From Branchiostoma floridae (lineage: Eukaryota; Chordata; Leptocardii; Amphioxiformes; Branchiostomatidae), in NCBI RefSeq assembly GCF_000003815.2, contig NC_049993.1, positions 17,265,220 through 17,329,219 of the forward strand: a DNA stretch of 64,000 bases. Direction: 5' to 3'. How positions within the stretch are numbered: the first letter of the stretch is position 1; the number at the start of each line of letters is the position of its first letter. The translations under genes were made by a program, and so were the position numbers. Under the pieces are notes generated by a model, which was given only the letters and a program-made list of their open reading frames with translations, did no database searches and had not been told where the DNA came from. Shown here piece by piece: positions 35,601 to 41,600 of the stretch.

Positions 35601-38600
35601 GTGTGTTAAAACCTCCATTCAACACCCCTCTTAAAAGAATCATAGAAAAAAAAAGAAGCTTTATAACATTCTAGGACAGCTTAGATCTGTGTGTTGATTA
35701 TACCATATCAGGCATTGTATCAAAGTCCCTAAAATTTCTACAGTGAAAGATTTTCCCAAATGTTTACTCTACAAAATAGGCATGTAAATAATATCCATAA
35801 TATCCTTTTGCAGTGAGCCACAATATATCCAGTTTAATGTTTCATTTTCTGTTTTCCTATCCCACGGGGACGCATGCATTGATTCACGTAAGCCTGCCAA
35901 AGCAAAAAAGCCCTCTAGGGCCCTTTAGTCTCCGTATGTTGTTCTAATCTCTCTTCTATTGTGAAAGAAAAGAACACATAAGTGGTGTGATAGAGGTATG
36001 ACGTCACTGATGACATCATTTCCCAATTAGCCAATCAGGCGAGCCGTCAGGTGGTTACCCAAGGTCAATCAGTGGGAGTAGCACAAGGTTGTGTTCTCGC
36101 CCTGATCCGATTACGCTGCCTTTTGTCACTAACAATAAGGTAGTCCATGCTTTGGTTGAGCAATAACAAGTGCGTCAACAATGTCGCAGGCAGGGAAAAA
36201 CACACAGAGCAAAGGACAGGCTCCAGTTTGAACAGGAAGTCAATGTTTCATGACAAAGTGCAAACATACTCCAAAAAGGTATCCAAATGACTTCCTGTAT
36301 AAACACAAGACTTGGAGACTGTTGTTTCTATCAAAAACATTACAACTTAACAGCTTTAACAAATAAAACTTAAAGATTTTAGCTGTGACTTTGGCACTGT
36401 GAAGGCAACATAAACAACTACTATTTACATTTACAATGAACATGTCAATAACTAAGGGCCTTTTGATTTGATTACATAGATAACATCCGCACGCAATTTT
36501 CATCAGTTTCCAAATAAAAAATGTTTTCGACCATAGGGGACAATGTGAAAGAACAAAATGGAAGAATATATTGTTTAATTCACCATCTGTTTTGCATTTA
36601 TTTAAACTTCCTGATCACTTAGATTTCATAACATGCAAATTTCTATATTGGCCAAAGCTTTTATTCGCAGGCTTGCATACATCTAGTCTGTGTAACACAA
36701 ACTCTGCTGTCCAGGGCTAAACTAGCCCCTCCCCGCGGGGCCGGCGGATGTTGGGCGGGCTGCTATAAGCGGGATTTAATCAGGCTAGCTTGCATTAGTC
36801 TTGAGGTTTCCAGAGGATGTAATACAAATATAATCAAATCAACATGGCCTCATACTGTCTATCTACAATAGAAAATATCGCCAGATTTGGACAATCATTA
36901 CACCATTACACTCCTCACCTGTGATGGACTCTCCCATTTCTTGGTGAAGTCTTCTTTGGCTTTTGCAAGGAACTCTTTCACTGTGGAACACAAGAGAAAA
37001 ACACATCTTTATGTCGGTGCCAAGATTCATCCTCAACAAGGTATTATAGGAGACTTTCAGTAGAAACAGAGACAGTCATGCAAGTAGAAAATTCACCTTT
37101 GCAAGCAAGTTGCATATACAAGATGGTACAGGGCTGCAAGAAGGAAGGATTCAAATACATGGTAATAGAAGAAACTTTCAATCTTAAACGTATAGTTTTA
37201 AAATAAGGTCAGATATCTTCTTAAAATCAATTGTTAGAGCTCGTATTAAGGCATGTGCAATTGTCACATTTAGCCAGAGTAATCTTTTGATTTTTGTACT
37301 GATCAATCGATAATTAAGCAAATCAATCAATGATCTACTTGGATGATAAACTATTATTCTAAGCCATGTTAGCTTGAAACAAGTTAAAGCTGAATTGTGG
37401 CATTTTGAGTACAAATGATGACTGTGGATTGAAAATGTTGTTTATTTAAAGTCGAAAATTACTTTCCAAAAGTGCACAAGATTTGGAATGTTTCAAAAGC
37501 ACTTTTTTCAAAGAAAATGTTGTATGTAAGTTTACAATAATTGTTATGAGATGTTCTAGATATGTCTGACAGCAAGATTACATTTCAGAGGGTGCTAACA
37601 GTAAAACAAAACAATCCTGTGCACTGGTATATTGTGACAAATGTGATGCATGTGAAGATGACAAACAAAAAAGAAAAACTTGCTGCACAGTGCCTGGAGG
37701 GGAAAGGGGGGTTTGCAGGGACACAGAAGCGCGGGGGAACATCATGCCGATGAAAAAAGCACTACAGTAGAGTCTTAAGTTAAACAGCATATAGCAAGGT
37801 AGCCCTACGCTTGGAAAAATGTGTGCGACGTACGAAATGTATGTACCGTTAAGATGTAGTAGTAGTAGTAGTACCAACAATTTGCGAATAGATTACAATA
37901 CAATTATGATATATTTGGCTCTTCGGTTGATGTTTTTTTTTAGTGCATTTGGAAAATCATAAACACATACTAACCACTGTCTGAGTACGAGCCATCACCA
38001 TGGCCTGTGGGACAATAGAACAAGTCGTGGCTAAGTTTGTGGCAAACACCAAGGTGAAAATCTAACCATACAATGCTTTACTGTCATATCATAACAATAT
38101 GGTTTATTTCCCCAAATCGGGACAAAAAAGCTAGCACACTTTACATGGTGGTAAGATGCTGTCCAAAAACGTTAGTTACTAATTAAAGGCATGCATATAG
38201 CTGTTGGTGTACCTAAACTACAGACCTAAGCACTAGTTAAACTAGATGTTGATGACCAACAAATCGTGCGTGGGGAGGATGGGACGAAATGGTCACAGAA
38301 GGTGGGATGACAATGGTGAGGATTGGATTCGTAAAATTCTTGACTATCTACAGGAAAATCTACTAAAATGTAAGCTATCACAAAATTTGGCATTTGTGAT
38401 TTTGTAGGGGAAAATGTAAAAATGTGTTGCAAAGAAAAAGGGGATCAGAGGACACTCATTTGACAACTCAAATGGCATGGTTTAAAAAAAGTCACTCTGT
38501 ATAAGGCCCACCTGGCCATTGTGGACCATTTTTAGTGTCTTTTAGAGTGACCGTAGTATGACCAGCTTGGTGTCAATACTACTGACCACTTGTGCTAAGC

Positions 38601-41600
38601 CCTGTGAGTGTCACTTAATCTATATACACAGGTTTGACAGCATAATAACAAGTGGAGCACGTAGGCAACAGACTGCATACTTGGAAATCATCAGACTGTG
38701 CATAATTCTTCTCCAAGAATCATTGTCTGTCTGTGTTTTCAAGATGACTAAGCCCAATCTTCATAGATTAGAACAACATGGCGGCTGGAAACAACCACTC
38801 ATAATGCAAGAACCACTACTGATGATGCAAGAAGGGGGAAAGGTGATCGAGCCTGGCCTGCTAATTTGCATATTTTGCACGCCCAGATTTTTTGTGTGCA
38901 AATGTTTCGCAGGCAAATTGCTCACGCGCAACAGACCCCATCGCAGACCACAAAACATTTATCCAAACTTACAAGACAATCCTGAAGCGTTTTGCTTAGC
39001 ATCTTGGCATGTCCTTGTCTTTTCAGTTGTCAACAGTTTTCAAGTGCTAGCCCCTTCCCCCTTCAAGAAGAGGACGAAAATTCTATAATGTAACCTCCAT
39101 TAACAAGTGTCTTGAAAAACAGTTTGTTTGTAAGGTCTTAAGTGCAGCGACCCCAGGTATATACAATTTAGATATGCAAGGGTGCTTTTTATATACACTG
39201 GGGGATGTTGTATTCCAGTTGTATTGTATTTCTGGGTGAAGGATATGTATGTGACCTTCGAATTACGTTGTAAATACTGTAGACGTTTCCTGTTAAATCA
39301 CCGGAGTCAACGCCCCCCGTAGGGATACGTGAAAAAATGGTTTACAAATGCCACAGCTGACGGCTTCATTATATGTTTTGTTTGCCATTCCTGTGTTGCG
39401 TTTGTGTGTTTATGTCAAGGTGGTTGCTTGGTATTTTTCCCATATCAGTGGTCGTTGACCCAAGAATGTCGTCAGGAAAAGTACTTGTTTTGAAAGCTGT
39501 TTTGCCCTACAACTTTCACATTATGACAAATGTTGAATATAATGTAGTCATTCTGATCACACACATCTCAACTACATGTCGTTTTCTATCCTGTTGTGTT
39601 TTTTAATTTCTTTATACGTTTATTAACATCAACTTTGACATTATGAGAAATGTTGAATATAATGTAGTCATTCTGATCACACACATCTCAACTACATGTC
39701 GTTTTCTATCCTGTTGTGTTTTTAAATTTCTTTATACGTTTATTAACATCAACTTTGACATTATGAGAAATGTTGAATATAATGTAGTCATTCTGATCAC
39801 ACACATCTCAACTACATGTCGTTTTCTATCCTGTTGTGTTTTTAAATTTCTTTATACGTTTATTAACATCAACTTTGACATTATGAGAAATGTTGAATAT
39901 AATGTAGTCATTCTGATCACACACATCTCAACTACATGTCACTTTCTATCCTGTTGTGTTTTTAAATTTCATTATACGTTTATTAACATCAACTTTGATA
40001 TTTGAAATCTATGTTGGTTGAATATCCTTTAAGAAGTTACCATATTGGAAGCATCATAAATGAAAGACGCCCACAAAAAAATTTTGACAAGTTCTTTTTC
40101 TGTACCAAAAGTAAACATTATTACCAGTTTACATATTGATATAGATCTGAACTTTACCTTGATAAAAAAATCTGAAAATAAAAGCTACTTCTTGTCTTAC
40201 CTTTAGAGATTTTCCCTATGGCTGGAACAAAAAAAGTAAAGTAAAAGAACTATTAAAGGGTGAAAAAATCCTTCACCAAAAAAAAAAAACAGGATAATAA
40301 AATATCAAGAAACACGATTGGATATTAAGAAATACCTATTTACAAGGTTGAACTTACCCTTACTTAGAATGTCTGACTTCTTTGCTGGGCAAGTGATCGA
40401 AAAGTAAAAAAAAAAATGTGTTTCAAAAAAGTTAAATCTCAAAAACAAAATACAAAAAAAAACCTCTCCAATTCTGAAAATTAAAAAAGATTGAAAAATA
40501 ATCAAATTGAAGTGTTTGAATTTGTCCAAAACAACAACATTATGTTCAAAGAAAAGGTAGACAAAGAGGTGCCTGGAACACGTAAACAACAACGAACCTC
40601 ATTACTCAGATTGGGTACCTACTGGCTGCAATATAGCACCAAGGTGAATAACAACAGTGATGTGTACAATGTAGGAGGTTAAGAGAACCATGGGCACCAA
40701 GCAAAAGTCAATAAATACACTATTGTATCGCCCACCTATAAGTTTCCTTGTATCCTAACAACATAGCTAATGTGAATATTATGAAAACAAAGCCATTAGA
40801 GCCATCTGAAATCAGATATCCCTACAAACATGTCACGAACATGTGTTTGGATTTCACTACAAAACGTGTTTCAAGACACAAACAGGTCAACTTGCCAGCC
40901 TGATGTGGACAAAGCGCTGTGTTTTTTCTACAAGCACTTGGTACTTCAGGAAAAATGCTTTGTAGCATCAGTGGAATGTAATAGCCTATTGAACATAACC
41001 GTTAAGCAGTTTCAAGTTCACGAAGACTTAATTTCAGAAGAAGAAAGAAGATGTTTGCAGTGTTTTGAAGTAAAATTGCCAAGAAAGAACTTCTTTGCTG
41101 TACCATGGGTTTGCTATAAAGACCAACTCGAAAACCCAAAAAAAAATAAAGCACTGTGATTTTGCGACTTAACTGTACACATGACAATTGTAAAGTGCCG
41201 TGTGCTATCGGGACATAGCTCTTCAAACAGACATCAAAGTAAGGATAAAACCTTTGCAGTTCCTCTTGGGAGAAATGCCTACTCGTAGCATCACTAGCAT
41301 TATATAACTTCCTTTCAAAGATATCAAACCGCTTTCATCCCTTGTAAATAGACATGTGAAACTATCACTAGGGAATACGTTTCACCGTTAGGGGTGTACC
41401 GGTACAAATTATTTTTCCTTGTGAGACTGGTCTGGAATACCTGGACCTGAAAAAAATCAGCAGGCCGGATGTTGGACAGCTTAGAAAATGTTTTGAGGCT
41501 TACCGGCCCAAGAAAAGTAGAGGAGCGAAGTAGAGGAGAGTTGATGGTCGATTTTGCCTTTTTAAAAGTTTCTACAGTCAAACTTGGTCTTAGATAACAT

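What the first reader, a model, noticed from the sequence alone, without database searches (positions are those of the whole stretch)
37975..40384. Cassette of three in-frame microexons (27, 21, 30 nt) in PKA intron 1
Seen: three short segments with near-consensus splice sites on the PKA strand, at 40384-40358, 40221-40201 and 38004-37975. All have lengths divisible by three, all are phase 1-1 and all are open in the frame set by exon 1. In order they add (A)KKSDILSK, (A)IGKISK and (G)HGDGSYSDS before [12 protein letters not shown]. Known: vertebrate PRKACB has tiny neural exons at this same place. Inference: the microexon cassette may be ancestral to chordates, not a vertebrate invention.
Basis: partly seen in the sequence, partly recalled or inferred. 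Interest (0 to 1): 0.85.

Follow-up and report, generated by a model that had tools for sequence, protein, structure and literature searches.

The report
Candidate microexon cassette in amphioxus PKA
The amphioxus gene for the kinase PKA carries three tiny, frame-preserving candidate exons where vertebrate PRKACB has its brain-specific mini-exons; they look like a splicing cassette, but whether the two share an origin cannot be decided from this sequence.

Summary
On the minus strand, intron 1 (11.3 kb) of an intact 351-aa PKA catalytic-subunit gene contains segments of 27, 21 and 30 nt exactly as stated, AG...GT bounded, phase 1-1 and open in exon 1's frame, so any combination stays in frame. 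A splice-score scan of intron 1, with its cut-off set at the weakest candidate, returns these three loci. Background is 0.31 hits per intron length in 400 kb of the same genome, 0.155 in shuffles, 0 antisense; block shuffles reach three loci in 1, 4 and 7 of 300. Support is uneven: the 21-nt exon outscores that whole background, the 27-nt exon has a weak acceptor, the 30-nt exon a weak donor and may be chance. Intron 1 also has many out-of-frame splice-like pairs, so the in-frame share alone is not significant. I read it as an alternative microexon cassette that lengthens the linker between the myristoylatable N-terminus and helix A (0.65). Ancestry with vertebrate PRKACB exons a-c is not established: no second cephalochordate or RNA was reachable, the peptides are too short, vertebrate a-c join other first exons, and published work reports rapid microexon turnover outside vertebrates. 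Independent gain is at least as likely.

The parts
40358..40384 (-). candidate microexon 1, 27 nt, phase 1-1, adds (A)KKSDILSK
   Evidence: acceptor 2.7, donor 6.3; AG exclusion zone 51 nt; TGC at -7; open in phase 1 only
40201..40221 (-). candidate microexon 2, 21 nt, phase 1-1, adds (A)IGKISK
   Evidence: acceptor 8.5, donor 6.6; sum 15.1 above the best (14.3) in-frame background hit; open in phase 1 only; second possible acceptor gives 40215-40201, 15 nt
37975..38004 (-). candidate microexon 3, 30 nt, phase 1-1, adds (G)HGDGSYSDS
   Evidence: acceptor 6.6, donor 1.4; weakest of the three; open in phases 0 and 1
48291..48336 (-). PKA exon 1 coding part (exon 1-1 type), [15 protein letters not shown] + G
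36919..36980 (-). PKA exon 2, (V)[20 protein letters not shown]
36981..48290 (-). PKA intron 1, 11,310 nt, host of the three segments
23568..34710 (-). PKA exons 3-10 with introns (kinase core), intact

Best explanation
A cassette of small alternative exons (at least two of the three in use) in the PKA catalytic-subunit gene of an amphioxus. Each is phase 1-1 and a multiple of three, and exon 1 and all three microexons end in G, so any subset can be included without changing the frame or the junction residues (A, A, G, V). Inclusion inserts 7 to 26 residues at residue 15, between the myristoylatable N-terminus of exon 1 and helix A of exon 2. Most likely effect (inference): a longer, mostly polar tether that uncouples the myristoylated tip from its pocket on the kinase and changes membrane association or localisation, with the kinase core untouched; the 27-nt exon also adds a KKS motif, a possible phosphorylation site. 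Neural inclusion through the eMIC domain of Srrm234 is the likeliest control (inference), with sequence hints for the 27-nt exon only. Shown: position, frame, exon-like structure, enrichment over background. Inferred: splicing, tissue, regulation, function.
For: Exact structure and frame. At sum >= 8 intron 1 has 3 in-frame open loci, these three, against 0.34 expected from 400 kb of the same genome, 0.155 hits in dinucleotide shuffles and 0 antisense; block shuffles reach three in 1, 4 and 7 of 300. The 21-nt exon scores 15.1; the best in-frame background hit scores 14.3. The 27- and 21-nt exons are open only in phase 1, the phase of the host junction. The 27-nt exon has a weak acceptor, an AG exclusion zone of 51 nt (26, 24 and 24 nt for the other two and exon 2) and TGC at -7, features that PMC8797185 reports for eMIC-dependent exons (passages). 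The amphioxus Srrm234 protein was the most active eMIC-bearing one tested (PMC12626424, passage).
Against: No RNA evidence and no second species. The 30-nt exon scores like two decoys in the same intron (45345-45314, sum 8.5, not a multiple of 3; 42712-42680, sum 7.9, stop inside). The cut-off was post hoc, significance fades at looser and stricter cuts, and given the number of splice-like pairs of any frame in intron 1 the in-frame share is not significant (3 of 4, P 0.11). Blocks of 60 nt give some segment of sum >= 15 in 28% of shuffles, partly because they can carry the candidate whole. Clusters occur by background too: 2 of 40 background strands hold 3 hits. Splice matrices are recalled human-like frequencies and one real PKA acceptor (exon 6) scores only 0.2. 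TGC is present at 1 of 3 exons. The two peptides ending in SK show no significant similarity (shuffle p 0.45).
Confidence: 0.65

Rival explanations
1. Independent gain (a form of the best explanation): the exon 1/exon 2 junction of PKA-C tolerates in-frame inserts, and lineages have evolved different small exons there; the amphioxus cassette and PRKACB a-c are analogous, not homologous.
For: Published: diverse, unrelated-looking 5' exons in invertebrate PKA-C genes, one ('p') spliced only with exon 1-1 (PMC5526564, section 10); microexon conservation falls off outside vertebrates, even in amphioxus, and hotspots of new exons exist (PMC8797185; PMC5703972 for Fgfr). Vertebrate a-c use other first exons.
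Confidence: 0.5
2. Common ancestry: the chordate ancestor had this cassette and vertebrate PRKACB exons a-c descend from it.
For: Position, phase and number match published descriptions of human PRKACB.
Against: Human a-c join only exons 1-3 or 1-4; no such first exon stands out here; general rapid turnover; no sequence evidence.
Confidence: 0.12
3. Only the 21-nt segment is a used exon; the 27- and 30-nt segments are decoys.
For: The 21-nt segment alone exceeds the background maximum; at sum >= 9 it alone remains. The other two each have one weak site, and similar decoys lie in the same intron.
Against: The 27-nt segment lies 136 nt upstream of the 21-nt one, has a strong donor and eMIC-type features; block shuffles rarely give three.
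Confidence: 0.2
4. None is used; all three are chance pseudo-exons in a long, T-rich intron.
For: Intron 1 sense is 34% T and has more splice-like pairs of any frame than background at every cut from 4 to 8; no RNA evidence.
Against: Dinucleotide shuffles 0.155, block shuffles 1-7 of 300, and the 15.1-bit segment.
Confidence: 0.15

Closest known systems
Human PRKACB exons a, b, c (Cbeta3ab, Cbeta3b, Cbeta3abc, Cbeta4ab, Cbeta4b, Cbeta4abc)
   Same: Cassette of three short exons between first exon and exon 2 at a phase-1 junction, included in various combinations (PMC3625193, passages; PMC5526564, sections)
   Different: Human a-c are seen only with first exons 1-3 or 1-4 (Cbeta1 is the only Cbeta form compatible with myristoylation) and are neural; here the only evident upstream exon is of the 1-1 type and expression is unknown. 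Homology untested.
Exon 'p' and other 5' exons of invertebrate PKA-C genes (Soberg et al. 2017, PMC5526564)
   Same: [quoted passage not shown] one of the three could be exon p
   Different: The text that I read gives no species, size or sequence for p; figures are not held and supplements were not available, so identity with p is open
eMIC (Srrm3/4, Srrm234)-dependent neural microexons
   Same: Very short and frame-preserving (the usual upper limit of 27 nt is recalled; the third exon has 30); the 27-nt exon has a weak 3' splice site, long AG exclusion zone and UGC near the 3' splice site
   Different: The other two lack UGC; eMIC dependence and neural inclusion not tested

Membership tests
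PRKACB a-b-c type cassette | Short exons between first exon and exon 2 of a PKA-C gene | tested here: met
   Position by sequence; that they are exons is inferred
PRKACB a-b-c type cassette | Frame-preserving at a phase-1 junction | tested here: met
   27, 21, 30 nt, all phase 1-1 and open
PRKACB a-b-c type cassette | Joined to short first exons 1-3 or 1-4, not 1-1 | tested here: inconclusive
   2 phase-1 ATG-to-donor candidates in intron 1 (donor >= 3 bits, both ending at 37097) against 7 antisense; the known exon 1 is found by the same scan. Joining needs RNA
PRKACB a-b-c type cassette | Sequence homology to exons a, b, c | not testable with these tools
   No vertebrate genome held; of 56 PDB sequences listed none is named beta, some bear no isoform name; the paper text that I read gives no a-c sequence
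PRKACB a-b-c type cassette | Neural-specific inclusion | not testable with these tools
   No RNA data
eMIC-dependent neural microexons | UGC close to the 3' splice site, long AG exclusion zone, weak 3' splice site | tested here: inconclusive
   All three marks at the 27-nt exon only, 1 of 3
eMIC-dependent neural microexons | An eMIC-bearing Srrm234 gene in this genome | not tested
   PF15230 search asked 15 times, never answered; activity of an amphioxus Srrm234 protein is from PMC12626424 (passage)
eMIC-dependent neural microexons | Loss of inclusion without eMIC | not testable with these tools
   Experiment needed
Invertebrate PKA-C exon p | Alternatively spliced, only with exon 1-1 | not testable with these tools
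   Needs RNA; sequence of p not in the text read

The most novel reading that the evidence does not exclude
The chordate ancestor already had a combinatorial microexon cassette in its single PKA-C gene, joined to the myristoylated exon 1-1. After the vertebrate duplication it was kept in PRKACB and re-wired to new, non-myristoylated neural promoters (1-3, 1-4), so that brain-specific Cbeta diversity predates vertebrates.
Probability: 0.12. Interest if true: 0.75.

Novelty: new member of a known kind. Interest (0 to 1): 0.4.

Why it matters
If the exons are used, amphioxus makes up to eight PKA catalytic subunits from one pre-duplication gene by varying only the N-terminal tether. That would give a simple system to ask what N-tail length does to a myristoylated kinase, and whether vertebrate Cbeta diversity is inherited or re-invented. 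Amphioxus RNA-seq could settle usage quickly.

Tried and rejected
Alternative first exons in intron 1: 2 candidates (both ending 37097) against 7 in the antisense control, taken as chance; an earlier scan with donor >= 5.5 found none, but that cut would also have missed the real exon 1. Larger internal exons of 37-180 nt: none in frame and open at sum >= 9.5; 7 segments of any frame at sum >= 9, three of them sharing a splice site with the 27- or 21-nt candidate, against 2.9 from background and 1 antisense, including a frame-shifting 37-nt segment 37133-37097; not pursued. Microexons of 3-11 nt: none at sum >= 9, each site >= 3. Common origin of the microexons with each other: shuffle p 0.45, 0.52 and 0.02 for the three pairs, the last on a four-residue match; not accepted. 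Solved structures of Cbeta variants: of 56 sequences listed none is named beta. Literature: searches for these peptides and the exon 1 start, for the recalled human insert, for PRKACB with microexon and for amphioxus with microexon listed no report of these exons; the held library lacks most subscription papers. PMC13281805 (microexons and the cAMP-PKA pathway, zebrafish) has no match for 'prkac'. Allelic copy as a conservation test: the flank of the 30-nt exon has one match in the assembly, its own; the flank of the other two was asked twice and not answered.

Papers: PMC5526564 outline, introduction part 1 of 2, results part 1 of 4, sections 8, 10 and 16, and passages; PMC3625193, PMC1557514, PMC8636463, PMC6143667, PMC8797185, PMC12626424, PMC5703972 and PMC13281805 as passages only; all others as listings.

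Recalled, from no call: the splice-site frequencies, the species label Branchiostoma floridae (suggested by mir-2060 hits, and a 513-Mb assembly), the ALG2 label, the human Cbeta4ab fragment (not used as evidence), the 27-nt limit for microexons.
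Full report
What is there. The window lies in a 513-Mb assembly of 431 contigs, contig C15. Five mir-2060 family matches suggest amphioxus; the species label Branchiostoma floridae is recalled. The minus strand holds an intact PKA catalytic-subunit gene. Exons of 46, 62, 129, 99, 83, 127, 96, 123, 165 and 126 coding nt splice to a 351-aa protein starting [27 protein letters not shown]. PMC3625193 (passages) states that exon number, lengths and phases are identical in chordate PKA-C genes, amphioxus included, and that only one close homologue was found in amphioxus. 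Intron 1 runs from 48290 to 36981.

The three segments. At 40384-40358, 40221-40201 and 38004-37975 (minus strand) lie segments of 27, 21 and 30 nt, each preceded by AG and followed by GT. Read in phase 1 they give [16 protein letters not shown] and [10 protein letters not shown]. Exon 1 and all three segments end in G, so every combination gives the same junction residues and stays in frame; all three together add 26 residues and leave one terminal stop. The 27- and 21-nt segments have stops in both other phases; the 30-nt one in one of them.

Chance. I scored donors and acceptors with recalled, human-like position frequencies. On the gene's own junctions nine real donors score 3.2-8.1, eight real acceptors 3.9-8.8 and the ninth (exon 6) 0.2. 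The candidates score (acceptor, donor) 2.7 and 6.3; 8.5 and 6.6; 6.6 and 1.4. Scanning all of intron 1 for 12-36 nt in-frame open segments with sum >= 8.0 and each site >= 1.4 returns 4 hits: these three plus a second acceptor of the 21-nt one. Antisense gives 0; 200 dinucleotide shuffles give a mean of 0.155 and none reaches 4. Twenty 10-kb stretches of the same genome, both strands, give 11 hits in 400 kb, 0.31 per intron length, best sum 14.3 against 15.1 for the 21-nt exon; 2 of the 40 strands hold 3 hits, so clusters occur. With overlapping hits merged and each site allowed down to 0, sum >= 8 gives 3 in-frame loci against 0.34 expected, P about 0.005; at 7, 6, 5 and 4 P is 0.013, 0.046, 0.11 and 0.10, and at 9 only the 21-nt exon is left, P 0.22. 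Block shuffles, which keep pyrimidine tracts, reach three in-frame loci in 1, 4 and 7 of 300 for blocks of 25, 40 and 60 nt.

What speaks against. The cut of 8 was set by the weakest candidate. Intron 1 sense has more splice-like pairs of any frame than background at every cut from 4 to 8 (14 against 5.12 at 4; 4 against 1.02 at 8), and given those pairs the in-frame share is not significant: 3 of 4 gives P 0.11, 3 of 7 gives 0.37, 3 of 9 gives 0.59. Two decoys, one out of frame and one with a stop, score like the 30-nt exon. My own estimates that each segment is used are about 0.85 (21 nt), 0.7 (27 nt) and 0.5 (30 nt).

How it most likely works. The insertion point is the exon 1/exon 2 junction, residue 15, between the myristoylatable N-terminus and helix A, outside the kinase core. 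PMC5526564 reports that Gly1 and Asn2 are universal and that the invertebrate C1 forms examined carry Asp at position 10, as here (passages). Adding 7 to 26 mostly polar residues should lengthen the tether and uncouple the myristoylated tip from its pocket, changing membrane association or localisation rather than catalysis; the 27-nt exon also offers a KKS site. These steps are inference. For regulation, the 27-nt exon has a weak acceptor, a 51-nt AG exclusion zone and a TGC at -7, while the other two have zones of 26 and 24 nt and no TGC in the last 30 nt. PMC8797185 lists weak 3' splice sites, long AG exclusion zones and UGC near the 3' splice site as marks of eMIC-dependent exons in Drosophila (passages), and PMC12626424 says that the most active eMIC-containing protein tested came from the amphioxus Srrm234 gene (passage). 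A search of this genome for that domain did not complete (15 requests, listed in the membership test).

Relation to vertebrate PRKACB. PMC5526564 describes human exons a, b and c as a cassette of short exons seen only with exons 1-3 or 1-4 and therefore neural. Position and phase agree with what is seen here. But the only clear upstream exon in amphioxus is of the 1-1 type; a scan for short phase-1 first exons in intron 1 gave 2 candidates against 7 antisense. That paper also reports diverse invertebrate 5' exons, one ('p') spliced only with exon 1-1, and leaves them uninvestigated; one of the present exons may be p, but the text read does not give its species or sequence. PMC8797185 says that conservation of neural microexons declines rapidly outside vertebrates, even in amphioxus, and PMC8797185 and PMC5703972 describe hotspots where alternative exons arise repeatedly. 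Common ancestry is possible but not supported; independent gain at a permissive junction is at least as likely.

Verdict. A correctly observed and probably real microexon cassette, best supported for the 21-nt exon; a new member of a known kind, with moderate interest that would rise if conservation and neural use were shown. The ancestral claim stays open.

Noticed in passing
window 28002-28194: 77-bp tandem array (2.5 copies, 96%) made of the acceptor end of PKA exon 9 (28034-27870), putting partial exon copies just upstream of the real exon.
   Followed up: partly
window 33235-33310 and 32647-32711 (-): Two partial upstream copies of the acceptor end of PKA exon 6 (80% over 76 nt and 92% over 65 nt); the real exon is 32205-32079. 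The first copy keeps the acceptor AG at 33279.
   Followed up: partly
window 63493-63617 and 63673-63797 (+): Near-identical partial duplication (125 nt, 96.8%) of a first coding exon resembling ALG2 (label recalled), apparently including its donor site; with the two PKA cases, three exon borders in one window carry partial tandem copies.
   Followed up: partly
window 5593-5950 and 6720-6811 (+): Five Rfam mir-2060 matches, four of them head to tail, in a stretch whose reading frames give a repetitive Cys/Val-rich peptide; the 'miRNA family' may be a minisatellite rather than hairpin genes.
   Followed up: no
window 39510-40002: 120-bp tandem array, 4.1 copies at 98%, in PKA intron 1 between the 21- and 30-nt candidate exons.
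   Followed up: no
window 26211-26897: 21-bp array of 33 copies in PKA intron 9.
   Followed up: no
window 37097-37133 (-): 37-nt candidate exon with acceptor 6.8 and donor 4.3 that would shift the frame; a possible poison exon, not tested against chance on its own.
   Followed up: no
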